From: Myxococcales bacterium
GTDB taxonomy: Bacteria > Myxococcota_A > Polyangia > Haliangiales > Haliangiaceae
Assembly: GCA_028287135.1 (NCBI GenBank)
Contig: JAQBQE010000033.1
Span: 62,001 to 126,000, forward strand
Direction of reading: 5' to 3'
DNA length: 64,000 nucleotides
This document shows positions 18,053-64,000 of the stretch, piece by piece (position 1 is the first letter of the stretch; each line of letters begins with the position of its first letter). The position numbers and the translations under genes were made by a program. The notes beneath the pieces were generated by a model. The model was not told the DNA's origin. It did not search any database and worked only from the letters and a program-made list of their open reading frames with translations.

Positions 18053-19116
18053 GCAGCGAACGGCTCGTCCGCCAGGCGCTGATCGAGAGCGCGCGCGTCC
18101 ACGCTGCGCTCGACCCCGCCGCGATCGCCCACGCCGCCGAGCTGATGCGCGATGCCGTGCTCGCCGGCAAGAAGGTCCTGCTGTGCGGCAACGGTGGCAG
18201 CGCCGCCGATGCGCAGCACATCGCGGCCGAGCTCGTCGGCCGGTTCGTCGTCGAGCGGCGGCCCCTCCCCGCGATCGCGCTGACCACCGACACCTCCGCG
18301 CTGACCGCCATCGCGAACGACTACGGCTACGAGCACGTGTTCTCGCGCCAGGTCGATGCGCTCGGCGCCCCTGGCGACGTGCTGATCGCGATCACCACGA
18401 GCGGCACGTCGAAGAACGTCGTCGCCGCCGTCGAGGTCGCGCGTGCCCGCGGCATGAAGGTGATCGGGCTGACCGGTGCCAAGGGCGCTGCGTTCGTCGC
18501 CTCGTGCGATGGCGGCGTCGCGGTTCCCGCCACCGTCACGGCGCGGATCCAGGAGTGCCACATCATCATCGGCCACCTCCTGTGCGAGGTCCTCGACGAG
18601 ACGTTCGCGCCGTCGCCGACGATCGTCGTCGGTAACGGCCACGCGCCCGCCAAGGAGATGTCGCTCGACCAGCTCGTGGTCTGGCGCGACGCCCAGCGCG
18701 CACGCAAGCGCTCGGTCGTGTGGACCAACGGCGTGTTCGACGTGTTCCACGCCGGCCACCTCGCGTCGCTGCGCGCCGCCCGCGCGTTCGGTGATGTCTT
18801 GATCGTCGGCGTCAACGGCGATGCCTCCGTCCGCGCCAACAAGGGACCGGAGCGCCCGATCTTCCCGTGCACCGAGCGCGTCGAGCTGCTCGCGGCGCTC
18901 GAGATCGTCGATGCGATCCTCGTGTTCGACGACGCGACGCCGGAGAAGGTGCTCGCGACGCTGAAGCCCGACGTTCACGTCAAGGGCGCGGACTACGCGA
19001 ACAAGCCGATCCCCGAGCGCTCGATCGTCGAGGCGTACGGTGGTCGGGTCGAGCTCGTGCCGCTCGTGGCAGGTCGCTCGTCGACCGACACGCTCGCGCG
19101 CATGAAGCGCTCGTGA
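18049..19116 (+). CDS. Sedoheptulose-7-phosphate isomerase fused to heptose-1-phosphate adenylyltransferase
   Basis: 355 codons from the GTG at 18049. Residues 1-190 are GmhA (SIS fold): CGNGGSAADAQH at 46-57 and the expected metal ligands His57, Glu61, Gln168 and His176. After a short linker, residues 205-355 are the HldE C-terminal domain: TNGVFDVFHAGHLASL at 226-241 (nucleotidyltransferase HxGH), then VNGDASVR and VKGADYANKPIPE. The protein would catalyse the first and last steps of ADP-D-glycero-beta-D-manno-heptose synthesis. Usually GmhA is separate and the adenylyltransferase is fused to the kinase; here the kinase is separate at 30889. Confidence 0.9.
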   Translation: MSSERLVRQALIESARVHAALDPAAIAHAAELMRDAVLAGKKVLLCGNGGSAADAQHIAAELVGRFVVERRPLPAIALTTDTSALTAIANDYGYEHVFSRQVDALGAPGDVLIAITTSGTSKNVVAAVEVARARGMKVIGLTGAKGAAFVASCDGGVAVPATVTARIQECHIIIGHLLCEVLDETFAPSPTIVVGNGHAPAKEMSLDQLVVWRDAQRARKRSVVWTNGVFDVFHAGHLASLRAARAFGDVLIVGVNGDASVRANKGPERPIFPCTERVELLAALEIVDAILVFDDATPEKVLATLKPDVHVKGADYANKPIPERSIVEAYGGRVELVPLVAGRSSTDTLARMKRS

Positions 19117-19628
19117 CCCGCGCGCTGTTCCTCGATCGCGACGGCACGCTGATCGTCGACGTCGGCTATCCGCGCGACCCCGCACTCGTCGAGCCCCTGC
19201 CCGGTGCTATCGAGGCGCTGCGCGAGCTCCAGACCTCGTACCGGCTCGTGATCATCTCGAACCAGTCGGGCATCGCGCGCGGCACGATCACCGAGGCCGA
19301 GGCGAAGGCGGTCCACAATCGGGTGATCGCCATGTTCGCGGCCGGCGGCGTCACGTTCGCCGGCAGCTACTACTGCCCGCACGCGCCCGATGCCGGCTGC
19401 CGCTGCCGAAAGCCCGCGCCCGGCATGCTGCTCGATGCGGCCGTCGAGCTCGGCCTCGATCTCGCGCTGTCGATCATGATCGGCGACAAGCCGTCAGACG
19501 TCGAGGCGGGTCGCGCCGCGGGCTGTGGTGGTGTCATCCGCTTCGGGCCCGATGTCGACGGGAACGATGGAACGCAGCGCTGCGATGACTGGCAGGGGGT
19601 TCTCGGTCTCGTACGCGCTGGAGGATAA
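19113..19628 (+). CDS. gmhB: D-glycero-D-manno-heptose-1,7-bisphosphate phosphatase (intact copy)
   Basis: 171 codons from the GTG at 19113, overlapping the preceding stop (GTGA). HAD phosphatase motif I is FLDRDGTL at the N-terminus. SNQSGIARG follows near residue 46 and the zinc site CPHAPDAGCRC near 88; KPAPGML and GDKPSDVEAGRAAG supply motifs III and IV. These fit GmhB, which removes the 7-phosphate (or 1-phosphate) of heptose bisphosphate before adenylylation. The C-terminus (GVLGLVRAGG) differs from that of the two broken copies downstream (GELLSALR), so those are older paralogues rather than recent duplicates of this one. Confidence 0.9.
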   Translation: MTRALFLDRDGTLIVDVGYPRDPALVEPLPGAIEALRELQTSYRLVIISNQSGIARGTITEAEAKAVHNRVIAMFAAGGVTFAGSYYCPHAPDAGCRCRKPAPGMLLDAAVELGLDLALSIMIGDKPSDVEAGRAAGCGGVIRFGPDVDGNDGTQRCDDWQGVLGLVRAGG

Positions 19629-19631
19629 CGC

Positions 19632-19715
19632 TCACTGCGCTTCGCTGGCGAGTGCGAGTAAGTACTGGCCGTACAGGCGGGTTCCCGCGTTGCCGGCAAG
19701 CATGATCCCTTTCAC
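19632..19715 (-). pseudogene. rfbA: rfbA deletion scar: first and last codons joined in 27 codons
   Basis: From the GTG at 19715 the minus strand reads VKGIMLAGNAGTRLY directly joined to [12 protein letters not shown] and a TGA at 19632. The first part is the N-terminus and the second the exact C-terminus of RfbA as found intact at 52885-53757 ([14 protein letters not shown] ... [13 protein letters not shown]). About 260 internal codons are missing. The join falls at the Tyr codon common to both flanks, suggesting deletion at short homology. It cannot be functional. It shows that a dTDP-sugar gene once stood next to gmhB. Confidence 0.85.
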
Positions 19716-19809
19716 TTCAGGTCCCAGCGCTCGCGCGCTCGTCGCGACCACTGGTCGGCAGCAGCCTAGTCCGAGCGGGCACCGAAGTCCCCATCGACGA
19801 ACATCGGTG

Positions 19810-21489
19810 CTAGTCGAACTGGTCGGCACCCAGAAGGGTCAAGCTGGTCGCTGCATTTCCGGGGTTCGCATACCAAGCGACGCTACCGTCAGCGAGCATA
19901 ACCCAGATTGCTACATCACCCGTGCTCGTATTTCGGAAAATCAGATCGGCGATGTCATCACCGGTAACGTCACGTGAGCCACCGAATGCCCACGTAGAGG
20001 TCGGGCCAGTGTAATTCTTAAAAGCAGAAACAATATTCCCAGCCGTCATCCACCAGATCGCGGTATTTCCAGACACGGTATTACGCCAAACAATGTCGCT
20101 CTTTCGATCACCGTTGAAGTCACCAGTTCCTTTGAATTCCCAGTCCGCAGACACGGTAGTCGCGATGAACGCACTTGTTGGATTCAAGACACCCTGCGAC
20201 ATCCACAGCTGAAGGGTCGTCCCGTTTCGCCAGAGGATGTCGGTCCGGAGATCCCCATCGAAATCGCCTGTTCCCTGGAACGTGTAGCCGCTGGGTACAG
20301 AGGCGAACGAAGTGGCCGATCGCACTGTAGCGGTACGATTCATGAACCATACCACAACTTGATTGTTAATCGGACTACGCCAGATAATGTCTGAAATACC
20401 GTCTGCGTCGAGATCGCCAATTCCAAGGAATGCATAGCCTGTCGACCCTGGATCCACATAGCTGGTGACAGCTCCGTTGCTCATGAGCCAGACAGACACA
20501 GTGTTCGTGCTTGGCGTTCGCCAAACAGTGTCAGCAATCCGGTCGCCGTTAAAATCACCTGTCCCAAGGAATGAGACGGATGCGCCCACCGCCGGTGGAT
20601 TCGCGTACCAAGCGACTCCACCGGTGGGTAGCATCATCCAGATCGCCAGAAACGTTCCGGATCTCCAGAGCAAGTCCGCTCCCCCGTGTGTCCAGTTCCC
20701 GTACAGACTGGCTGCGCCCCATCGATCGCGCTCCGACCACCAGAAGAAATCGTCTCCACAGTCTGAATGCCGCCCCATGAGGGAGTTCTGATCGTGCGAA
20801 GTTAACGCCCTCCAATCAAGGTCGTCTTCTCCGTCGTAGTAGCAAGTATCTCCGGGCTGCACGGACTCGTGGCGGAATCCAAGAATGTGGCCGAATTCGT
20901 GCCCCATCACCGCAACGAGATCTCTAGGGCTGTTTCCAGTGACGGTCGGCTCCTTGACAAGGATCTCCCGCTGTGACCGTGGCCAATCAGGGAAGAAGGC
21001 TGATGCCGCAAACACATATTCCGGGCCAACAACTTTTCGGACATTGAAGACGACATTTAGGTTGGACGAGTTGCAGCCAGCTCCGTCCTGCGAGGGAACG
21101 TGGGTGAACTTCACCTTCGCCCGCCTGTTCCATTCGGCGTCTGCCCCCTTGAGCGCATTCAGAATCCACTGCGTGTGGACTCCGAAGCTCGTATCGACAC
21201 AATATGTCAAATTCTCCTTGGTGTAGTCATCCCATTTGACATCGTACCCGCGATTCAGAACTGTAAGGGCGCCTGGCAGGGCCCCTGCCCAATACTCGTA
21301 CAGTTCCTCTTCAGATCTCACACGAATGTCGCCCTCGACGACATACATCCCCTCTACTGCTGGAGTTGACTCCTTGAACTCCTGGAACGTTCCAAGCGGA
21401 TTATCCCCCGTGGATGCTATGTGCGGGGAAACCTCCTCGATTGCACACCCGGCACTACCGATCGCGACTAACATCAATACCGTCTTCAT
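19810..21489 (-). CDS. Secreted lipoprotein: metzincin-like zinc protease with six C-terminal repeats
   Basis: 559 codons from the ATG at 21489, with GGAG just upstream. The lipobox places Cys at 15 (IGSAGC). The zinc site HEFGHILGFRHE covers 197-208 (His197, Glu198, His201, His207), and a later Met238 in SLMGRHS may be the met-turn, as in matrixin/astacin-type metzincins. From residue 271 on there are six repeats of about 48 residues with the core DxxWRN...VxxWxM...GTGDFNGD, an FG-GAP/VCBS-like propeller. It probably acts outside the cell or on its surface as a protease. Base composition is clearly lower in GC than the flanking glycan genes, suggesting transfer. Confidence 0.85.
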   Translation of the reverse strand: MKTVLMLVAIGSAGCAIEEVSPHIASTGDNPLGTFQEFKESTPAVEGMYVVEGDIRVRSEEELYEYWAGALPGALTVLNRGYDVKWDDYTKENLTYCVDTSFGVHTQWILNALKGADAEWNRRAKVKFTHVPSQDGAGCNSSNLNVVFNVRKVVGPEYVFAASAFFPDWPRSQREILVKEPTVTGNSPRDLVAVMGHEFGHILGFRHESVQPGDTCYYDGEDDLDWRALTSHDQNSLMGRHSDCGDDFFWWSERDRWGAASLYGNWTHGGADLLWRSGTFLAIWMMLPTGGVAWYANPPAVGASVSFLGTGDFNGDRIADTVWRTPSTNTVSVWLMSNGAVTSYVDPGSTGYAFLGIGDLDADGISDIIWRSPINNQVVVWFMNRTATVRSATSFASVPSGYTFQGTGDFDGDLRTDILWRNGTTLQLWMSQGVLNPTSAFIATTVSADWEFKGTGDFNGDRKSDIVWRNTVSGNTAIWWMTAGNIVSAFKNYTGPTSTWAFGGSRDVTGDDIADLIFRNTSTGDVAIWVMLADGSVAWYANPGNAATSLTLLGADQFD

Positions 21490-21599
21490 GAGACTCCAGT
21501 GCGTTTAGTGAGAATTGATTTTCGTATTGGCATCCCTCTCACGGGGATCGCCGAATTCAAACCTTCGCACGAGTGCCATGTTCCAAGAACCGCGGGAGC

Positions 21600-21616
21600 T
21601 GGTGCAAAGCGCGCCA
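21600..21616 (-). promoter_or_regulatory. 17-bp near-palindrome upstream of the metalloprotease gene
   Basis: The minus strand reads TGGCGCGCTTTGCACCA, matching TGGMGC-NNTTT-GCRCCA found at three other sites near 23236, 23273 and 25623. It ends 110 bp before the protease start codon. A shared operator or promoter element is inferred from repetition, symmetry and placement. Confidence 0.35.
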
Positions 21617-21680
21617 CGATCAGCTGCCGACGCAAGCGTGTCCTGCGCGCCGTGACGCTGGTCATTTGATCGCGCGAGGC

Positions 21681-22082
21681 GAGCTGCAGACCTCGTACAA
21701 GCTCGTGATCATCTCGAACCAGTCGGGCATCGCGCGCGGGAAGATCACGGAGGCCGAAGCGGAGGCCGTCCATGCGCGCGTGATCGAGCTGTTCGCCGCG
21801 AGCGGCGTCACGTTCGCCGGCAGCTACTACTGCCCCCACGCACCGGACGCCGGCTGCCGTTGCCGCAAGCCTGCGCCCGGCATGCTGCTCGACGCTGCCG
21901 CCGAGCTCGGCCTCGATCTCGCGACCTCGGTGATGGTCGGCGACAAGGTCTCGGATCTCGAGGCGGGCCGCGCCGCGGGCTGCGGACGCGTGATCCGGTT
22001 CGGGCCCGATGTCGACGAGGACGGCGCGCACCGATTCGATGACTGGGGCGAGTTGCTCTCAGCTCTTCGCCGCGACGCGTAG
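21681..22082 (+). pseudogene. gmhB: gmhB second copy, lacks N-terminal catalytic part
   Basis: From 21681 the reading frame matches the intact GmhB from about residue 38 to the end (ELQTSYKLVIISNQSGIARG, zinc site CPHAPDAGCRC, GDKVSDLEAGRAAG). The motif I segment with the nucleophilic Asp is missing. The sequence just upstream (21651-21680) has only faint similarity to the gene start and carries a TGA. Without motif I it cannot be a phosphatase. It ends in GELLSALRRDA, like the third copy. It lies directly behind the metalloprotease promoter region. Confidence 0.85.
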
Positions 22083-22173
22083 CGCCGGGCCCGAACTCAC
22101 CGCACGCATGCCGCGTGTCTGCGCAAGAACCGTACGTTGACGATCGACATCGACCGCCCGCATGGTTGCCGCA

Positions 22174-22605
22174 ATGCGATGGATGTTTGCGGCTTGCTTG
22201 CTCGTCGGATGTGGCGAGAATGAACCGGCGAAGCCTGAGGCCTGCGAGCTGGACGACGGGCGTGTGTTCAAGCCCGGCGACAACTTCCCCGCTGGAGACG
22301 AGTGCAACGGCTGCTACTGCTTCACGGATCAGATCACGCCAGGGTACTGGGGGTGCACCGGGATTCTGTGCCATGAGCCCAGACCAGTGGCCTGTGGTCC
22401 CGTTCAAGGAACGGAGTGCAACCTCGGCCCGATCTGCGGCGATGGATGCTGTGGTCAAGGCGAACGGTGTGTCGGCGGAACCTGCAAGTGCGGAGACAAC
22501 GCCGCCTGCGATCCCGGCAGCGTCTGCGGTTCGGCAGATCCTCTCGTCGACGTGGAAGGCTGCGGCAGCGTGTGTTGTCCGCCCGGCGCGGGTTGCGCGT
22601 CGTGA
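22174..22605 (+). CDS. Small cysteine-rich lipoprotein
   Basis: 143 codons from the ATG at 22174, which gives a clean lipoprotein signal (FAACLLVGC, Cys13). An ATG at 22162 adds four residues. The mature part has over twenty cysteines: a first module CELDDGRVFKPGD...CNGCYC resembling von Willebrand C or pacifastin-like folds, then CGDGCCGQGERCVGGTCKCG and a final GSVCCPPGAGC. Such disulfide-rich surface proteins are frequent in myxobacteria; no enzymatic role is visible. It sits between the two decayed gmhB copies. Confidence 0.7.
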   Translation: MRWMFAACLLVGCGENEPAKPEACELDDGRVFKPGDNFPAGDECNGCYCFTDQITPGYWGCTGILCHEPRPVACGPVQGTECNLGPICGDGCCGQGERCVGGTCKCGDNAACDPGSVCGSADPLVDVEGCGSVCCPPGAGCAS

Positions 22606-22674
22606 CGCTCTCGCGCTCTGTCGATGCGGACTGTGCGCTTCGCGTCCGTACGCCCATCGGTAAAGCAGCTCCTA

Positions 22675-23079
22675 CAGCCTCGTGATCATCTCGAACCGGT
22701 CGGGCATCGACGGCAAGGTCACCGAGGCCGAGTCCCAGGCCGTCCACGCGTGCGCGGTGGAGCAGTGTGCGTGAGACTGCGTCACGTTCGCTGGCAACTA
22801 TTACTGCCCGCACGTAGCGAATGCCGGCTGCCGCGCCTCAAGCCCGCCCCCGGCATGCTGCTCGATGCCGCAGCCGAGCTTGACCTCGATCTCGCGAGCT
22901 CGGTAATGGTCGGCAAGGGCTCGGATCTCGAGGCCGCCCGCGCTGCGGGCTGCGCGCGCGTGATCCGGTTCGGCCCCGATGTCGACGATGACGGCGCACA
23001 GCGGTTCGATGAGTGGGGCGAGTTGCTGTCTGCTCTCCGCGTTGTGCCTTTAGCGACGGCAATGCCGCCGCCGCTTTGA
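22675..23079 (+). pseudogene. gmhB: gmhB third copy, stop codon and frameshift
   Basis: The DNA matches the other gmhB copies from SLVIISNRSGI through YYCPH to RVIRFGPDVDDDG and GELLSALR. It carries an in-frame TGA at about 22772 and a frameshift at about 22837, after the zinc-site region, which also destroys the last zinc Cys. Motif I is absent. It ends like the second copy, so copies two and three come from one earlier paralogue. Homology ends near 23040; the open frame continues to 23079. Confidence 0.85.
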
Positions 23080-23235
23080 TCTGATACGGCACAACTAATC
23101 GACGGGCGATGCACGGAGTATGGCTTCTCAATGCTGGAAGCAGCGTGCAGCGCTCCAAGCCCAGGAGAACGCAACCGAACCGTGGGCAGGGACTCGACAC
23201 CGGTGAATCCAATGGCGACGGTCAAGAGTGAGTTG

Positions 23236-23252
23236 TGGAGCGTTTTGCGCCA
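23236..23252 (+). promoter_or_regulatory. 17-bp near-palindrome, first upstream of trypsin-like gene
   Basis: TGGAGCGTTTTGCGCCA, matching TGGMGC-N5-GCRCCA. It lies 140 bp before the start of the trypsin-like gene and 20 bp before a second copy, so the pair could bind a regulator side by side. The function is inferred. Confidence 0.35.
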
Positions 23253-23272
23253 TTCCAGTACTAGCTTCCCAA

Positions 23273-23289
23273 TGGAGCAATTTGCGCCA
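23273..23289 (+). promoter_or_regulatory. 17-bp near-palindrome, second upstream of trypsin-like gene
   Basis: TGGAGCAATTTGCGCCA, 103 bp before the ATG at 23393. This distance is similar to that seen before the metalloprotease (110 bp) and the beta-helix gene (94 bp). Apart from these sites, 23080-23392 holds no supported gene. Confidence 0.37.
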
Positions 23290-23392
23290 CGGTGCGCGCA
23301 GCGACATAGACCGTTCGACGATGACCAAGGTGAGCGAGACATGTATACGCAACCTGTCCCCACAAGCAACGCGGGATAAAAGGACGTAGCAG

Positions 23393-25078
23393 ATGGAACT
23401 CATGTCTCGGTTTAGCGGCAAGCTTCGATTCCGCATCATTGCAGCGGCGGTCGCCACAGTTTCTCTCGGCGCCTGTGTGGAGGAGATTGATTCGCCGACT
23501 TACAGCTCGACATCGACCGGACTCGTCAACGGCACTGTCGAGAGCGACGCCAATTTTCCATGGGTAGTTAACCTAGCCATCCCGGCAGGTAGTTGCAGAG
23601 GAGTCCTCATTGCGCCCACGTGGGTTTTAACAGCCGCTCACTGCGTCAGCCACCAGTCTGGTGTAGTAACAATTTATTACAGCAGAACCAATCCCAATAC
23701 GGGAATCACAACGAATGGCAGCCAGATAACTTATCCAGGCTCGGCGACCAGACATCCCCAATGGAATCCTGCTGACCCGACATCAGGTTACGACATCGCA
23801 TTGGTGAGGCTCCCGAACGCCTTCGCTCCAGACCCACTTTTGCAGACTGCGTTCCTTCCGATATCCTGGGCCGCTGTCGGCCAGCAAGGCACGATAGTCA
23901 CGAGTGGAGACGGAAGCGGTACAGCCCGCGTGTGGCGAGGAAATGTGGTTTCTAGTGGTTGCATACCGTATTCGAATGAATTTTGCGTCCAATCGGCGAC
24001 CGCATCAGCCTGTACGGGTGACAGCGGAGGTGGGTTCGTTACCTCATCAGGCGGGGTGCATTTTGTGGTTGGCATTAATGCTAACGCAACTGATACGTCG
24101 TGTTCTGTATCAAACTCACCACATACAGCGACCGGAGTATATCCGTACGCAGGGTGGATTCAGGGGATCACCGGGACGCTTCCTGTTCCACCTAGATCGG
24201 CATCTGATTTGGTCTGGCGCAATACTGACGGCACCGTAACCTTTTGGTTTATGAACAGCGCGGCGTTCAACTCGGTCCAGGCCAGCGTCGCACCAGGGAA
24301 TGACTGGCAAATCAATGGAACTGGCGACTTCAACCATGACGGATACGGAGATCTGCTCTGGCGCAACACCACTGCTGGTACAGTGAAGGTATGGCTAATG
24401 AACACAGCAGTAATCATGACGCAACCTCAATCTGCTGTCGTGCCAGGACTTGATTGGCAGATTTCCGGAACTGGAGATTTTAACGGCGATGGAAATACAG
24501 ATCTCCTATGGCGGAACAACAACGGCGTTGTGAACCTTTGGTTCATGGTGGGAGGGGCACTGTCTTCCCAGCAGCAGCCGTCGGTGGTCCCTGGGTCGAC
24601 GTGGCAAATCAAAGGAACAGGCGATTTCAATGCCGATGGGAAAGCCGATATTCTCTGGCGCCATGCGGACGGCACGATCAAGATCTGGTTGATGAACGGT
24701 GGCTCGATAGTCTCCGAGGTGCAGTCCTCCACCGTTCCCGGCAGTGATTGGGACGTGAAGGGAACCGGGGACTTCAATGACGATGACACTACTGATATCT
24801 TGTGGCGGAATACCAACGGCACGGTGAAAATTTGGACGATGAGCGCTGGATTGCCGAGCACTCAGATCGATGTGAGCCTGAACCCGGGTAATGGATGGCA
24901 AATCCAAGGCGTCGGCGATTTCAACAAGGATGGGCGCGATGATATCGTCTGGCGTTACACCGATGGCTCGGTGAAGATGTGGATGATGAGCGGCGCTATC
25001 ATCCTCTCCCAAGCGCAGCCTTCGCTGAACCCGGGAAACAGCTGGCAGATTAAGGGTACTGGCAGACTCGACTGGTAA
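23393..25078 (+). CDS. Secreted lipoprotein: trypsin-like serine protease with six C-terminal repeats
   Basis: 561 codons from the ATG at 23393, preceded by AAAAGGA at a good distance. The lipobox gives Cys28 (VSLGAC). The S1 protease domain has the full triad: His83 in LTAAHC, Asp134 in GYDIALVRL, Ser211 in CTGDSGGG. From residue 271 six repeats of about 48 residues follow (core DLLWRN..GxVxxWxMN....W.I.GTGDFNxDG), nearly the same module as on the metalloprotease. It probably degrades protein outside the cell, the repeats forming a propeller for binding or display. GC is lower than in flanking genes. A GC-rich hairpin follows the stop. Confidence 0.9.
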   Translation: MELMSRFSGKLRFRIIAAAVATVSLGACVEEIDSPTYSSTSTGLVNGTVESDANFPWVVNLAIPAGSCRGVLIAPTWVLTAAHCVSHQSGVVTIYYSRTNPNTGITTNGSQITYPGSATRHPQWNPADPTSGYDIALVRLPNAFAPDPLLQTAFLPISWAAVGQQGTIVTSGDGSGTARVWRGNVVSSGCIPYSNEFCVQSATASACTGDSGGGFVTSSGGVHFVVGINANATDTSCSVSNSPHTATGVYPYAGWIQGITGTLPVPPRSASDLVWRNTDGTVTFWFMNSAAFNSVQASVAPGNDWQINGTGDFNHDGYGDLLWRNTTAGTVKVWLMNTAVIMTQPQSAVVPGLDWQISGTGDFNGDGNTDLLWRNNNGVVNLWFMVGGALSSQQQPSVVPGSTWQIKGTGDFNADGKADILWRHADGTIKIWLMNGGSIVSEVQSSTVPGSDWDVKGTGDFNDDDTTDILWRNTNGTVKIWTMSAGLPSTQIDVSLNPGNGWQIQGVGDFNKDGRDDIVWRYTDGSVKMWMMSGAIILSQAQPSLNPGNSWQIKGTGRLDW

Positions 25079-25088
25079 CTGTCCTTTC

Positions 25089-25115
25089 CGTGGGCCCCCC
25101 CGCTTAGGGCCCGCG
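25089..25115 (+). terminator. GC-rich hairpin after the trypsin-like gene
   Basis: CGTGGGCCC at 25089-25097 pairs with GGGCCCGCG at 25107-25115 (one G-T pair) across a 9-base loop, starting 10 bp after the stop codon. There is no T-tract, so intrinsic termination is plausible but not certain. Confidence 0.45.
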
Positions 25116-25622
25116 TATGACCAAGTCGGCCGGTCAAAGCACGTCGTTGTGCGGCGGACCGCGTAATTCCCCATGCTGGAACTCCTCTCGCTCAACCTTT
25201 GACGCGCGAGCACTTGGCTTACACGTTCCTGCGGATCGGGAACTTTCGACGATCGAGCCGGTTGCCTAACGACGAGACTGCCTCGACAGAGGGTGTTCGA
25301 TGTGTTGACCACGGTGTCGAACGAATGCTGTGGCCGGACGCGCAGCTCATCGTGAGCCGTCGCTGCTCGATCTTGTTCCACTTGCTCGTACCCGACAGGA
25401 GGTGGCTGACCTATTGCGAGGTCGAATGCGTCGGCGAGCTGTTGAAGGTGCGCCTTTGCAAACGCCGCGATCCGTGGGCGACCGAGCGCATCAGTGGCGT
25501 AACCACCACCAGCAGCACAGGTCGCGAGACGCCGGAGAACAAGGTGCTGATTGTGTCGCGAGATGTCGACAATGATTGCGACCCAATCGCCGTGATGTGA
25601 ACCAGCCCACGCCGAACATCGC
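25116..25622. other. Intergenic stretch without a supported gene
   Basis: Open frames exist on both strands here, the longest plus-strand one at 25199-25600, but none has a convincing start site, recognisable motif or normal composition. The end, 25594-25612, holds a GATGTGAACCAGCCCACGC word repeated at 28230-28248 on the other side of the beta-helix gene. Probably decayed DNA. Confidence 0.4.
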
Positions 25623-25639
25623 TGGAGCACTTTGCGCCA
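25623..25639 (+). promoter_or_regulatory. 17-bp near-palindrome upstream of the beta-helix gene
   Basis: TGGAGCACTTTGCGCCA, 94 bp before the ATG at 25734. A TACTAT at 25684-25689 could be a -10 box downstream of it. It is the fourth member of the motif set in the island. Confidence 0.37.
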
Positions 25640-25733: not shown

Positions 25734-27479
25734 ATGTCGATAAAGCAGCTACCTCCGAGCCATGATGGCATTCACAGTGATGCTCCAGAGGGGAGTCAGA
25801 CTAGGCGTACGGCCCTCCTAGGCCTCTTCGGCACGTCGGCACTACTAGGCCTCGCCAGTTGCGTCGAGGCGACCACGGAGGGTTCAGCAGTCGACCTCGG
25901 AGAGACAACGAGCGCGGCTACTGGCACTACGATCGGATGGGCGGATCGCATTGGCACCATAGCGTCGCCTTTAGACCTGCGCACCATGACGCAGGGTCAG
26001 TACTCTATCGTCATTGCCAAGGGCTTCCATGTGCCAGGGGACGGAGGCGGTGGCGAGTTCCACTGGACAACGGATACTTCGACTCCCGATGACGGTGGCA
26101 CTGTAATCGTGAATAGTGACGTAATCTTGGATCTCATCCCCCGCACAGGATGCTGGAAGCGGCTAGCGGGATGTTCGAGTACTGCAGTCTCGTCGTCTTC
26201 CTCGATTGGCCCACTTCTCAACGTCAAGTGGTTTGGCGCAAAGGGCGACGGCATCAACAACGATGTCAATGCGATCCAGATGGCGGTCGACAAGTGCGGT
26301 TTAGCCGGCGGAGGAATCGTGTTCTTTCCCCCGGGGCGCTACAAGACACTGGCGCAGATCGTTGTGCAGAAGAACGGCGTCGTCCTGATGGGAACCGGAC
26401 ATTCTTCAGTGATCGCACCCGTTGGAGGATTCAATACCGTAGCATTCGGCGCCGCTGACACGAGTTACATCTACGGCTGTGGTCTGTTCGATCTCCTCTT
26501 CGAAGAGAGTGGAAAGACGTCCGGCCTCCTGTTGTCCGCAGTGCGTGTTGCGAAATTCACAGCCAGCCGTGTCCGCGGAGAGAGTGGCGTGAACGGCCTG
26601 CTGTTCAACATGTTCAATATTATCCGACTAAGCGAAGTGACTATCATCTCCTACCGCGGCGGCTTCGGCACTGCGAATCTTCGACTTACGAACATTTCCG
26701 AGGCGGGCGATGTCGCATGGATTCGCGACAGTCTGTTCAGCACAAACGGCCGCGTGCTCCCAACGGATCCACCGCTCAATTCGATGAAAGGGATCGACAT
26801 TGACGGCCACGTTCACACAGTCAATCTTGCGCGAGTCGGCGTTGGCAATGCTGGGGCCGAGGCCATCCACATCCGCAACTCTGTCGGTTCAGCAGAATTC
26901 CCCAAGTTCATCACTGCCTATGACTTGGAATTGGAATTTTCTCACAAGGAGTGTCTCCGACTCGACAAGGGCGAGAAGTGTTCTTTCGCTAGCAGCCTCA
27001 TCCACGGGTCCTACACCGCTGATAACGTTGTCGTCGGAACGACGTGCAGAAACATCGATTTTGCCGGCGGCTCCTCAACGGGTGCAAACAGGTCTGGAAT
27101 GGCAATCGATGGTCGCAACATCTCTGTCTCCGGCATGCGATTTTCCACCAACAACATGGGCGGAGGGGCGTATCCAGGAATTCTTCTGCAGGGGTCATGC
27201 AAAGGAGTGACGGTCACGGGGTGCAGGTCTGGTGAGTCAGATCCTGCCTCGTCGACAAACCCAGGCACTCAACGCTATGGACTCCAAGTCGACACCGGCG
27301 CAAAGGGTTTCAACATCACTGGAAACACTTTCTTGAACAACCAGTTTACAGGCGTTATTTTCGGGGGCAGCAATTCTGATTTTGTGTACGCAAACAATAT
27401 CGGCGTGCCCACTTTCCTGAATCCACAGCCAACAAATCACGTTAACGCGAACAATGTGAATGCGAACTATCTGGCGTGA
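25734..27479 (+). CDS. Exported beta-helix protein, pectate-lyase-superfamily-like
   Basis: 581 codons from the ATG at 25734, preceded by AAAGG. The N-terminus has twin arginines (Arg24-Arg25) before a hydrophobic stretch ending in LLGLASC, so it may be a Tat-exported lipoprotein with Cys43. The segment NVKWFGAKGDGINND near residue 165 is the usual start of a Pectate_lyase_3-type right-handed beta-helix, and the rest is Gly/Asn/Val-rich repeating strands ending in an Asn-rich tail. Such proteins bind or cleave polysaccharide, or act as tailspike-like surface proteins. Catalytic residues cannot be named. Composition is less GC-rich than the flanks. Confidence 0.78.
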   Translation: MSIKQLPPSHDGIHSDAPEGSQTRRTALLGLFGTSALLGLASCVEATTEGSAVDLGETTSAATGTTIGWADRIGTIASPLDLRTMTQGQYSIVIAKGFHVPGDGGGGEFHWTTDTSTPDDGGTVIVNSDVILDLIPRTGCWKRLAGCSSTAVSSSSSIGPLLNVKWFGAKGDGINNDVNAIQMAVDKCGLAGGGIVFFPPGRYKTLAQIVVQKNGVVLMGTGHSSVIAPVGGFNTVAFGAADTSYIYGCGLFDLLFEESGKTSGLLLSAVRVAKFTASRVRGESGVNGLLFNMFNIIRLSEVTIISYRGGFGTANLRLTNISEAGDVAWIRDSLFSTNGRVLPTDPPLNSMKGIDIDGHVHTVNLARVGVGNAGAEAIHIRNSVGSAEFPKFITAYDLELEFSHKECLRLDKGEKCSFASSLIHGSYTADNVVVGTTCRNIDFAGGSSTGANRSGMAIDGRNISVSGMRFSTNNMGGGAYPGILLQGSCKGVTVTGCRSGESDPASSTNPGTQRYGLQVDTGAKGFNITGNTFLNNQFTGVIFGGSNSDFVYANNIGVPTFLNPQPTNHVNANNVNANYLA

Positions 27480-27645: not shown

Positions 27646-27900
27646 ATGCGACGCAAGAGCAAGTTTGCGAATGAGCAGAGCATTCGCGCGCTGCGAGAGA
27701 GCGACGGCGGCGCGAAACAGGGCGACGTTGCGCGTCGCCTCGGCGTGACCGAGCAGACCATCTACCGCTGGAAGGAGCGGCTCGGTGGGATGCAGGTCAA
27801 CTGGATCAAGGAACTAAAACGAAGAACGGCCATACGCCGCACTTGGGGGACTCACGCCTCTCGAGTACGAAACGAGATCAACTTCGGACATCACGCGTGA
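27646..27900 (+). pseudogene. IS3-family transposase OrfA remnant
   Basis: From the ATG at 27646 the peptide MRRKSKFANEQSIRALRES, then QGDVARRLGVTEQTIYRWKERLGGM, is the helix-turn-helix half of an IS3-family (IS407-like) OrfA. Family resemblance stops at about residue 55; the remaining 30 residues are unrelated, and no OrfB follows. It is a leftover of an insertion sequence at the right part of the island. Confidence 0.8.
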
Positions 27901-28014
27901 CATAGATCCGGGGGCACGCCCCGGTTGAACGCACGTGCCGACTGAGATCAAACTTCTGACATCACGCGTGGCGTAGATCCCGGGGCACGTCCCGCTTGAA
28001 CGCACATGCCGACT
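27874..28014. repeat. Tandem direct repeat of about 70 bp, two copies
   Basis: Copy one at 27874-27943 and copy two at 27944-28014 both run from GAGATCAA to GCCGACT, sharing ATCACGCGTG, TAGATCC, GGGGCACG and TTGAACGCAC, with about a dozen differences and one extra base. It lies directly behind the transposase remnant. No coding or known structural role is seen. Confidence 0.75.
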
Positions 28015-28110
28015 GGCCGCCAAGTCAACTCTCCCGCTCTCGTGGCTCGTACCCATCGGCGATCGGGCGTATGCAGCGTAGCTCCGCTACGACGAAAGCG
28101 CGCTGCGATC

Positions 28111-28248
28111 GCAACAACTGCGACGTTGATGTCGTGGTGATGTGAATCGCCACACGCAGCACTCGTGATCGCGGGATGTACGATGAGATACGCAGCGACT
28201 GGCAACAACTGTGACGAAGATGTCGTGGCGATGTGAACCAGCGCACGC
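28111..28248. repeat. Pair of 47-bp direct repeats in the gap before 28275
   Basis: 28111-28157 and 28202-28248 both begin GCAACAACTG and contain GATGTCGTGG and ATGTGAA, with about 39 of 47 bases equal. The last 19 bases of the second copy recur with one mismatch at 25594-25612. The stretch 27901-28274 otherwise holds no gene. Confidence 0.65.
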
Positions 28249-28274
28249 GGTGATCGATCCGAACCGCGCTGGCG

Positions 28275-62331: not shown

Positions 62332-62431
62332 GAACGTGTGGTGCGTTCTGCACCACCGGCACACACAGCGATGCCAGACGAGAAGCTGGCTCCTGCGTCA
62401 GAGGATCCTTACAATCGAACGGAAGGTGGTG

Positions 62432-64000
62432 ATGGGGTCGACCCAGGAGAAGACGAAGGCCCTGGTCGTCGCCACGCGGTGCACGACCGTCGAGCAGTTC
62501 GTCGCGACGTTCCACAAGTTCTGCGACGACTCGACGTTCTTCGTCTCGACCCTCGCCGAGCGGCCGGTCGGACTCGAGACCGCGTTCTCGATCCAGCTCG
62601 AGGACAAGACACCCGTGCTCCGCGGGTTGTGCGAGGTCGTCGAGGCGTGGTCGACGCCGCTCAACCGGTTCGGGCGCCCGGGCGTTCGCCTCGCGGTGCG
62701 GCGGCTGACCAACGAGAGCATGGTCGTGTTCAAGCAGCTGCAGGTCGCTCGCGTCGCCGCCGAGGCCGCCGCTGCCGCGAGCCCGCCGCCGGCACCTTCC
62801 ACCGCGGTCGCACCACCAACCCCGCCAGCGCGGACGCCGATCCACACGCCGCCACCCACCCCGCGGTTCGATCCGCGCGTCAGCGAGGCGCCGTCGCTAC
62901 CTCGGATCGGCACGACGCCCGCGAACGGCACGCCGATCGCCGCGGCCTCGGCGCCGGTCCGGGCCGCCGCGCATGGCACACCGACGGTGCCGGTCGCCAG
63001 GGTACCCCTGCTCTCGGTCGCACTTCCCACGCCAGCGCCCGTCGCGCGCGTCCTCGGCGCCATCGCCACATCGCCGGCGTCCAGACCCGCGCCCGGGTCG
63101 ATGGCCACGATGCAGCTGCCCACGATCATCCGGGCGCCTGAGCCCCCGCCGAGCGCACCACCGCCGAACGTCACGCCACCACCGCCGGCCGCCATCGCGC
63201 GTGGTTCATCACCGCGACCTCCGGAATCGACCACCGTGGTCGAGCCCGACCTCGCCGCGCCCGAGCCGATCGCTGCGAGCGATGAGCGGACGACGCCGGT
63301 CGCGGTCGAGTCGCGCACGCCGGGCTCGAGCTACGTGCTGCCGGCCAATCCGCTGATGAACCTGACCGATCAGTCGCTCGGCGGATTCATCGACTGCGCG
63401 CTCTACGAGGAGACGGGCAACTTCTTCCGCGCGCCCGGCTACGAGGACTCGCTCGTCGATATCGACGATGTCGCCGCGCCGCCACCGCCGGTGCTCGCGC
63501 CGGTCTCCGCGATCCGCACTGGCGAGCCGACCGCACCTCCCCACAACCTCTCGCCGTACGCATTCTCGCCGCCGAGCGAGCCGGCGATGCAGTTCGCGCC
63601 CGAGGCGACGCCGCTGCCGATGCTCGCGCCGCTCGCGGTGCCGGTCGCATCACGGTACTCGGAGCCGCTGTTCGCACCGGATGCCGCGCCGTACGCGCCG
63701 CCCCCGATGCCGACGGCGTCGGCCGCACCGGTCGACAGCACGGCAGCGATGTTCGCGATCCTGTCGCCGAGCCGCCGCCGGTGGCTCGTGATCGGTGGCG
63801 CGGCGGCAGGGCTCAGCCTGCTGGTCCTCGTGATCGTGCTCGCGAGCGGTGGTGGCGATCGCCCGTCGACGCCGCGCGTCGCCACGGCCTCGGCCGCGAC
63901 AGCGCCGTCGAAGCCCGAGCGCGCAGTGCCCACGCCGTCTCCGAGCACACCCGAGCCCGCCGCGACGCCCGCCACGGCTGCACCGGCTGTTGCAAAGGCG
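62432..64000 (+). CDS. PilZ-like, proline-rich single-pass membrane protein (runs off window)
   Basis: 523 codons from the ATG at 62432 (GGAAGGTGG just upstream) to the window edge, with no stop. Residues 1-100 resemble the PilZ-type domain of myxobacterial paralogues (FHKFCDDSTFFVSTL, then PVLRGLCEVVEAWSTP and RPGVRLAVRRLTNESM). A long Ala/Pro/Thr-rich linker follows, with a short conserved-looking patch PLMNLTDQSLGGFIDCALYE near 310. One membrane helix is at about 450-470 (RRRWLVIGGAAAGLSLLVLV), then another Pro/Thr-rich stretch. The fold assignment is moderate. Binding of c-di-GMP is not shown, as the RxxxR motif is not evident. Confidence 0.7.
   Translation, partial: MGSTQEKTKALVVATRCTTVEQFVATFHKFCDDSTFFVSTLAERPVGLETAFSIQLEDKTPVLRGLCEVVEAWSTPLNRFGRPGVRLAVRRLTNESMVVFKQLQVARVAAEAAAAASPPPAPSTAVAPPTPPARTPIHTPPPTPRFDPRVSEAPSLPRIGTTPANGTPIAAASAPVRAAAHGTPTVPVARVPLLSVALPTPAPVARVLGAIATSPASRPAPGSMATMQLPTIIRAPEPPPSAPPPNVTPPPPAAIARGSSPRPPESTTVVEPDLAAPEPIAASDERTTPVAVESRTPGSSYVLPANPLMNLTDQSLGGFIDCALYEETGNFFRAPGYEDSLVDIDDVAAPPPPVLAPVSAIRTGEPTAPPHNLSPYAFSPPSEPAMQFAPEATPLPMLAPLAVPVASRYSEPLFAPDAAPYAPPPMPTASAAPVDSTAAMFAILSPSRRRWLVIGGAAAGLSLLVLVIVLASGGGDRPSTPRVATASAATAPSKPERAVPTPSPSTPEPAATPATAAPAVAKA

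What the first reader, a model, noticed from the sequence alone, without database searches (positions are those of the whole stretch)
21600..25639. Shared 17-bp near-palindrome before the protease and beta-helix genes of the island
Four sites fit TGG(A/C)GC-NNTTT-GC(G/A)CCA: 21600-21616 (minus), 23236-23252, 23273-23289 and 25623-25639. They lie 94-140 bp before the start codons of three otherwise unrelated exoprotein genes and point the same way as the gene. Half-sites TGGNGC and GCNCCA with a fixed 5-bp gap look like a dimeric regulator's operator, so the proteins may be one regulon. An alternative is that the sites are relics of a dispersed repeat: on the opposite strand three of them can be read as W-R-K-x-L.
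Basis: partly seen in the sequence, partly recalled or inferred. Interest (0 to 1): 0.75.

Follow-up and report, generated by a model that had tools for sequence, protein, structure and literature searches.

The report
Rewired operator of a bacterial response regulator
The four near-palindromes are real binding-site-like sequences, part of a genome-wide set that most likely serves one two-component response regulator, and in this lineage one symmetric base of the site appears to have changed together with one residue of that regulator's DNA-reading helix.

Summary
The four sites are exactly where stated and far beyond chance: 7 exact matches in the genome, about 0.01-0.02 expected. The general core TGGnGC-N5-GCnCCA occurs 31 times in the 4.84-Mb MAG; all 19 copies with an A/T-rich spacer are intergenic, against 2 of the other 12. 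Flanks are unrelated and arms do not covary, so an operator, not a repeat or hairpin. One such site lies before a RegA/PrrA-like response regulator (receiver + Fis-type HTH). Orthologues in five relatives (Kofleriaceae-like) have the same 6-5-6 dyad in their own promoters, but with C instead of G at position 3: TGCnGC-N5-GCnGCA. That form has 6-17 copies in each of seven relatives. The regulator subtype was detected in six genomes, all enriched for one form, and in none of 27 unenriched ones; two enriched genomes lack a detected copy. Its recognition helix has Lys where the relatives have Gln, at the residue aligned with Fis Arg89, which in one Fis complex lies near base -6, i.e. position 3 here. 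I infer a natural operator-specificity switch, from a single case. The 'exoprotein regulon' idea is only weakly supported; targets are mixed. Binding is unproven.

The parts
21600..21616 (-). operator-like site TGGCGCGCTTTGCACCA, 110 bp before the metalloprotease start
23236..23252 (+). operator-like site TGGAGCGTTTTGCGCCA, 140 bp before the trypsin start; same 17-mer also at G000:C2:19719-19735
23273..23289 (+). operator-like site TGGAGCAATTTGCGCCA, 103 bp before the trypsin start; starts 37 bp after the start of the previous site
25623..25639 (+). operator-like site TGGAGCACTTTGCGCCA, 94 bp before the beta-helix start; extended dyad CGCTGG...CCAGCG
62339..62355 (+). fifth core-perfect site in the window, TGGTGCGTTCTGCACCA, 70 bp before the gene at 62426; not matched exactly by the stricter pattern
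19810..21489 (-). target gene: Matrixin-like metalloprotease with FG-GAP repeats, hydrophobic N-terminus
   Evidence: Pfam
23393..25078 (+). target gene: trypsin with FG-GAP repeats, lipobox-like N-terminus
   Evidence: Pfam
25734..27479 (+). target gene: pectate-lyase-like / right-handed beta-helix protein
   Evidence: Pfam
62426..64000 (+). target gene of the fifth site, runs off the window, no Pfam family

Best explanation
The 17-mers are dyad operators, 5'-TGGHGC-(A/T-rich 5 bp)-GCDCCA-3', bound by a dimer of a RegA/PrrA-like response regulator with a Fis-type helix-turn-helix (G000:C45:41358-41948, minus strand; outside the window). By analogy with Fis, each recognition helix reads one 6-bp arm in consecutive major grooves, with its conserved Arg (Fis Arg85) on the G at +-7, while the central 5 bp must be A/T-rich so that the minor groove can narrow. 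The regulator has a site before its own gene (autoregulation) and the other 18 sites lie near some 15-17 further genes or gene pairs, including the three window genes. In the relatives the orthologue uses TGCnGC-N5-GCnGCA; in this lineage both the operator (base pair +-6, C to G) and the regulator (Gln to Lys at the Fis Arg89 position) differ, which I read as a specificity switch. Shown: the sites, their intergenic confinement, the two motif forms, the co-occurrence with the regulator subtype and the residue difference. Inferred: binding, which protein binds, the effect on transcription (sites lie mostly about 50-190 bp before a start, range -1 to 300, which allows activation or repression) and the causal role of the Lys.
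For: 31 core matches in G000 against 10.5-13.5 expected; all 31 classified: 19 of 19 with at least 3 A/T in the spacer intergenic, 2 of 12 otherwise (Fisher P 1.5e-6); predicted coding fraction of 400 kb background 92.4%. No flank similarity and no pairing at positions 4/14 (5 of 19, 6.5 expected). L041 regulator: Response_reg + HTH_8, core-perfect site just upstream. Same-architecture sites upstream of 7 of the 8 regulator genes of this subtype, counting G000. TGCNGCRWNWYGCNGCA counts (reversed-pattern control in brackets): G009 17 (4), G002 15 (3), G001 14 (2), G014 13 (5), G005 9 (4), G007 8 (3), G015 6 (1); the other 28 of 35 genomes 0-3 (0-7). 62 of the 63 sites listed for five relatives examined: 48 intergenic, 47 of these with a gene start on at least one side. 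Regulator subtype (IYRS/IFRS helix) detected in 6 genomes, all enriched for one form; 2 enriched without it; 27 with neither (Fisher P 1.7e-5). Helix alignment to Fis places the differing residue on Arg89 and the Arg on Arg85; Fis structures put Arg85 on G+-7, need an A/T centre -2..+2 and in one complex place Arg89 3.4 A from G-6 N7 (passages of PMC4784862).
Against: No binding or expression data. G005 and G015 are enriched for the TGC form but no regulator of this subtype was found although all candidates of the first look were scored; they are 88% and 86% complete. The Lys/TGG pairing is a single case, so residue-base covariation cannot be tested statistically. The genomes are related, so the Fisher P for co-occurrence is too small, and the cut of 6 copies was set after seeing the counts; in four unenriched genomes (G012, G017, G024, G029) not all candidates were scored. 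The second G002 regulator (C697) has no perfect site. Two of the 19 G000 sites (L026:5512, L029:4488) lie between convergent predicted genes and one (L036) is unclassifiable; at L029 an unpredicted 158-aa ORF starts at the site edge. In relatives one site is between convergent genes and 14 of 62 lie in predicted genes. The 3-A/T cut-off was chosen after seeing the data, and genes were called by my own codon-usage script. The ten core positions are invariant by construction of the search. The two forms also differ at position 4: T is 13 of 38 half-sites in G000, 6 of 96 in relatives. None of the five M16 orthologue loci of relatives checked has a site of either form, so target sets differ.
Confidence: 0.75

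Rival explanations
1. Operator, but of another regulator, for example the GAF-AAA-HTH_8 enhancer-binding protein that is itself a target in two relatives.
For: That protein also has a Fis-family helix and a site before its gene in G002 and G007; G005 and G015 have the operator but no detected response regulator of the subtype.
Against: Orthologues at 65% identity or more occur in unenriched G003, G004, G011 and G013 and were not found in enriched G000, G005, G014 and G015 (in G005 and G014 only 96 of 124 and 96 of 116 candidates were scored, and G000 is 59.5% complete). By eye its helix carries Tyr at the position in question.
Confidence: 0.18
2. Relic copies of a dispersed repeat or of coding FG-GAP repeats (W-R-K-x-L read on the other strand).
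For: Three window sites do read W-R-K-x-L on the opposite strand; FG-GAP repeats contain TGGCGCAA.
Against: 19 of 19 A/T-spacer sites are intergenic and their flanks are as dissimilar as controls; relatives carry a form with another base at position 3 in their regulator promoters.
Confidence: 0.02
3. An RNA or single-strand hairpin (terminator, REP-like element or 5'-UTR structure).
For: The site is palindromic and sometimes extends to 19-23 bp.
Against: Positions 4 and 14 pair in 5 of 19 sites, 6.5 expected by shuffling. 16 of 19 sites in G000 and 47 of 48 intergenic ones in relatives lie in tandem or divergent gaps.
Confidence: 0.03
4. Chance coincidence of GC-rich words.
For: The general core without spacer rule is expected 10.5-13.5 times.
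Against: 7 exact matches against about 0.01-0.02 expected; intergenic confinement.
Confidence: 0.005

Closest known systems
RegA/PrrA/ActR/RegR redox response regulators and their operators
   Same: Receiver plus Fis-type HTH; PrrA effector domain 1UMQ is the best solved match of the DNA-binding end (E 1.4e-12). The R. sphaeroides PrrA motif quoted in PMC5506826 (YSCGGC(5)GWCRMA) is also 6-5-6 (passages).
   Different: 124.3 bits against the NCBIfam cut-off of 250; arms are TGSnGC/GCnSCA; helix IYRSxL(Q/K)RRL instead of the MHRRTLQR of PrrA. G000, G007 and G009 also carry a separate HRRSLQRKL-type paralogue, nearer the family (177.3 bits in G000).
Fis of E. coli
   Same: Predicted reading frame of the site: G at +-7, A/T-rich centre -2..+2, dyad of 15-17 bp (PMC4784862 passages).
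   Different: Fis reads mainly DNA shape and backbone and binds poorly related sequences (same paper); here the arms look much stricter, though the core was fixed by the search.
NtrC-type enhancer sites (recalled, no call: TGCACC-N5-GGTGCA)
   Same: 17-bp dyad, 6-5-6, Fis-type HTH.
   Different: Different arm sequence. No sigma-54 promoter was seen by eye near the window sites, but no scan for one was run.

Membership tests
ActR/PrrA/RegA response regulators (NF033791) | receiver domain followed by HTH_8 | tested here: met
   Response_reg 30-138, HTH_8 153-194
ActR/PrrA/RegA response regulators (NF033791) | score above the curated equivalog cut-off | tested here: not met
   124.3 bits, cut-off 250; so called RegA/PrrA-like only
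ActR/PrrA/RegA response regulators (NF033791) | RegB/PrrB-type sensor kinase encoded beside it | tested here: inconclusive
   of the neighbours in L041 only the divergent 275-aa gene was scanned, no family
ActR/PrrA/RegA response regulators (NF033791) | redox control | not testable with these tools
   no expression data
Fis-type HTH operator | A/T-rich central 5 bp | tested here: met
   sites with at least 3 A/T in the spacer 19 of 19 intergenic, others 2 of 12
Fis-type HTH operator | G at +-7 of the dyad | tested here: inconclusive
   present in all sites, but fixed by the search pattern; the inverted-repeat scan, which set no sequence, also found TG-starting dyads in regulator promoters, beside other repeats
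Fis-type HTH operator | bound by the protein in vitro | not testable with these tools
   needs EMSA or SELEX
dispersed mobile repeat (REP/MITE) | copies share sequence beyond the core | tested here: not met
   mean flank identity 0.270, control 0.277

The most novel reading that the evidence does not exclude
A whole response-regulator regulon has changed its operator in one lineage: base pair +-6 of at least 19 sites reads G where relatives' sites read C, matched by one Gln-to-Lys change at the Fis Arg89 position, and the new form has been recruited to lineage-specific genes such as the protease/beta-helix island. It would be a natural, readable case of concerted regulator-operator evolution.
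Probability: 0.5. Interest if true: 0.78.

Novelty: new variant of a known kind. Interest (0 to 1): 0.63.

Why it matters
It turns four look-alike sites into a predicted regulon with a named candidate regulator, and offers two operator forms in related bacteria that differ mainly at one symmetric base pair, alongside one recognition-helix residue. That makes a long-standing question, how a regulator and dozens of its sites change together, directly testable with two small proteins and two short DNAs. It would also give an operator for a RegA/PrrA-like subgroup in Kofleriaceae-type bacteria; my searches of the held library (0, 3, 0 and 1 papers) listed none whose title or abstract start concerns such a regulon. 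Only the listings were seen.

Tried and rejected
Rejected: dispersed repeat, coding relic, hairpin, chance. Sigma-54 -24/-12 element: considered from the recalled consensus only; the spacing does not fit by eye. The enhancer-binding protein as regulator: rejected as the main candidate by its distribution. Looking for site conservation before M16 orthologues led nowhere: five relatives' loci, 49-55% identical in protein, have no site of either form. Lipoprotein targets looked striking by eye but did not hold under one rule applied to targets and background; the rule is crude and by eye misses some lipoboxes, among them the metalloprotease's. A phylum scan for a stricter TGG form found 6 in G000 and 0-2 in each of the other 376 genomes, so no second TGG lineage was found in that sample. 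The genome-contig scan gave one relative, a Kofleriaceae MAG. Passages of a LuxO paper (PMC11407668) and two literature listings were seen; the LuxO paper is not used.

The reversed-pattern control printed by the genome search exceeds the general core (67 against 31), as it does the 19-bp form with 2 mismatches (4041 against 789), and nearly equals the one-mismatch form (33 against 39). I judged it a poor control in this GC-rich genome and used Markov expectations instead; for the A/T-spacer TGG form it is 0 against 10.
Full report
Observation. The four sites are present without mismatch at the stated coordinates, 94-140 bp before the start codons of a Matrixin-like FG-GAP metalloprotease, a trypsin with FG-GAP repeats and a beta-helix/pectate-lyase-like protein. 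The window lies in G000 (contig C16:62001-126000), 4.84 Mb, 59.5% complete. The exact pattern occurs 7 times in it, about 0.01-0.02 expected.

What the element is. The general core TGGNGCNNNNNGCNCCA occurs 31 times, 10.5-13.5 expected. I fetched all 31 and placed them against genes called by a codon-usage script. All 19 with at least three A/T in the 5-bp spacer are intergenic; of the other 12, two are (Fisher P 1.5e-6), where 92.4% of 400 kb of background is predicted coding. The cut at three A/T was chosen after looking. The ten core positions are fixed by the search; of the free ones, position 4 is C 17, T 13, A 8, G 0, position 7 is A 28, G 8, T 2 of 38 half-sites, and T is absent just outside the arms. 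Flanks of 40+40 bases are no more alike than controls (0.270 against 0.277), and positions 4/14 do not pair more than shuffled. Eight of the 19 lie in divergent, eight in tandem and two in convergent gaps, one is at a contig end; at one of the convergent two (L029) an unpredicted 158-aa ORF starts at the site edge. Of 20 sites with one core mismatch (the 18 plus two), 8 are intergenic, 2 overlap a gene end and 10 lie in genes, so some degenerate members are likely. A fifth core-perfect site in the window lies at 62339-62355, 70 bp before the gene at 62426.

Finding the regulator. Among the target genes scanned with Pfam (the L029 and L036 neighbours were not validly scanned), the only transcription factor behind a core-perfect site is a response regulator with receiver and HTH_8 domains (L041:3859-4449, G000:C45). 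Its nearest matches in same-genus genomes G001, G002, G007, G009 and G014 are 45-60% identical. Their upstream DNA shows the same 6-5-6 dyad with one systematic difference, TGCnGC...GCnGCA: G007 and one G014 copy TGCCGCATTTTGCGGCA, the other G014 copy TGCAGCAAATCGCTGCA, G002 TGCAGCATTTCGCGGCA, G001 TGCAGCGTTTTGCGGCA, G009 TGCCGCAATTTGCGGCA. Counting G000, 7 of the 8 genes of this subtype have such a site; the second G002 copy has none that is perfect.

The relatives' regulon. TGCNGCRWNWYGCNGCA was counted in 35 genomes of the order: 6-17 in G001, G002, G005, G007, G009, G014 and G015 (reversed-pattern control 1-5), and 0-3 in the other 28 (control 0-7), G000 with 2. The TGG form TGGHGCRWNWYGCDCCA is 10 in G000 (control 0) and 0-3 in the other 34; 16 of these hold one recurring word, TGGTGCATCTCGCGCCA, which lies in a predicted gene in all 9 loci checked. 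A stricter TGG form is 6 in G000 and 0-2 in each of 376 other genomes of a phylum sample. I examined 62 of the 63 TGC sites listed for G001, G002, G005, G007 and G009: 48 intergenic (26 tandem, 21 divergent, 1 convergent; some over 300 bp from a start), 14 in predicted genes, one of these (L175) being the G001 regulator's own upstream region with a probably over-extended start. The sites of G014 and G015 were not examined beyond the G014 regulator promoters. Both forms avoid G at position 4 (0 of 38; 1 of 96) and T just outside the arms (0 of 38; 2 of 96), but T at position 4 is commoner in G000 (13 of 38 against 6 of 96).

Co-occurrence. A profile of the regulators' C-termini found the IYRS/IFRS subtype in G000, G001, G002, G007, G009 and G014 only (E at most 2.2e-29); the best hits of 22 other genomes, printed, all have an HRRSLQRKL-type helix. 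All six carriers are enriched for one operator form; 27 genomes have neither; G005 and G015 are enriched without a detected regulator (Fisher P 1.7e-5, not corrected for relatedness, and with the cut of 6 set afterwards). These two exceptions are the main evidence against the assignment; both assemblies are incomplete. An alternative, an enhancer-binding protein that is a target in G002 and G007, occurs in four unenriched genomes and was not found in four enriched ones.

The switch. The profile aligns with E. coli Fis so that the invariant Arg falls on Arg85 and the Gln/Lys on Arg89. In Fis, Arg85 contacts G at +-7, the centre -2..+2 must be A/T-rich, and in one complex Arg89 lies 3.4 A from the N7 of G at -6 (passages of PMC4784862). 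In the 17-mer, position 2 is -7, position 3 is -6 and the spacer is -2..+2. Lys is found only in G000 among the eight regulators, and G000 is the only one of the 35 genomes enriched for G at -6. This fits a one-residue, one-base-pair switch, but it is one case, so causality is inference.

What the regulon holds. G000 targets include the window proteins, an FG-GAP protein (L030), an M16 peptidase protein (L027), an NlpB-like lipoprotein (L033), a PD-(D/E)XK nuclease (L035) and the regulator itself; a trypsin-like protein (L111) has a one-mismatch site. Of the relatives' 57 target genes 30 were scanned; they include Ser/Thr kinases, hybrid histidine kinases, an M16 peptidase, phosphoesterases, eCIS_core, SpvB/FG-GAP and CHAT proteins and the enhancer-binding protein. 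Exported-looking targets are 12 of 19 in G000 and 29 of 57 in relatives against 41.5% of 325 G000 background genes (P 0.048 and 0.098); lipobox-like ones are not enriched. So a mixed regulon with at most a mild lean to exported proteins is the fair statement.

Membership. It works like a RegA/PrrA regulator with a Fis-type operator, but the NCBIfam equivalog cut-off is not met (124.3 against 250 bits), so I call it RegA/PrrA-like. The 6-5-6 layout is shared with the R. sphaeroides PrrA motif quoted in PMC5506826 (passages).

Limits.

Noticed in passing
window 19113-23079: Three copies of the 3' part of a gmhB-like HAD phosphatase gene (gene at 19113-19628, partial 21666-22082, decayed 22669-23079; pieces 74-90% alike) alternate with the metalloprotease and a small Cys-rich ORF, as if the island grew by repeated duplication at this gene end (the name gmhB is recalled).
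   Followed up: partly
window 27646-28260: Transposase orfA-like fragment (HTH_Tnp_1) followed by two pairs of diverged direct repeats (27880/27951 and 28111/28202); one repeat type has a weaker copy just upstream of the beta-helix operator at 25587-25617.
   Followed up: no
L181:422-1942 (G007), L185:2115-3629 (G002): A GAF-sigma54-HTH_8 enhancer-binding protein, 69% identical between the two genomes, has the TGC-form operator upstream in both, a possible conserved second layer of regulation.
   Followed up: partly
L194, L198 (G002): Hybrid histidine kinases with a site 90-98 bp upstream; candidates for a partner kinase of the regulator.
   Followed up: no
16 relatives listed, e.g. L053:1501, L064:1501: The 17-mer TGGTGCATCTCGCGCCA recurs once per genome; it lies inside a predicted gene in all 9 loci checked, so it looks like a conserved coding word, not an operator.
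   Followed up: yes
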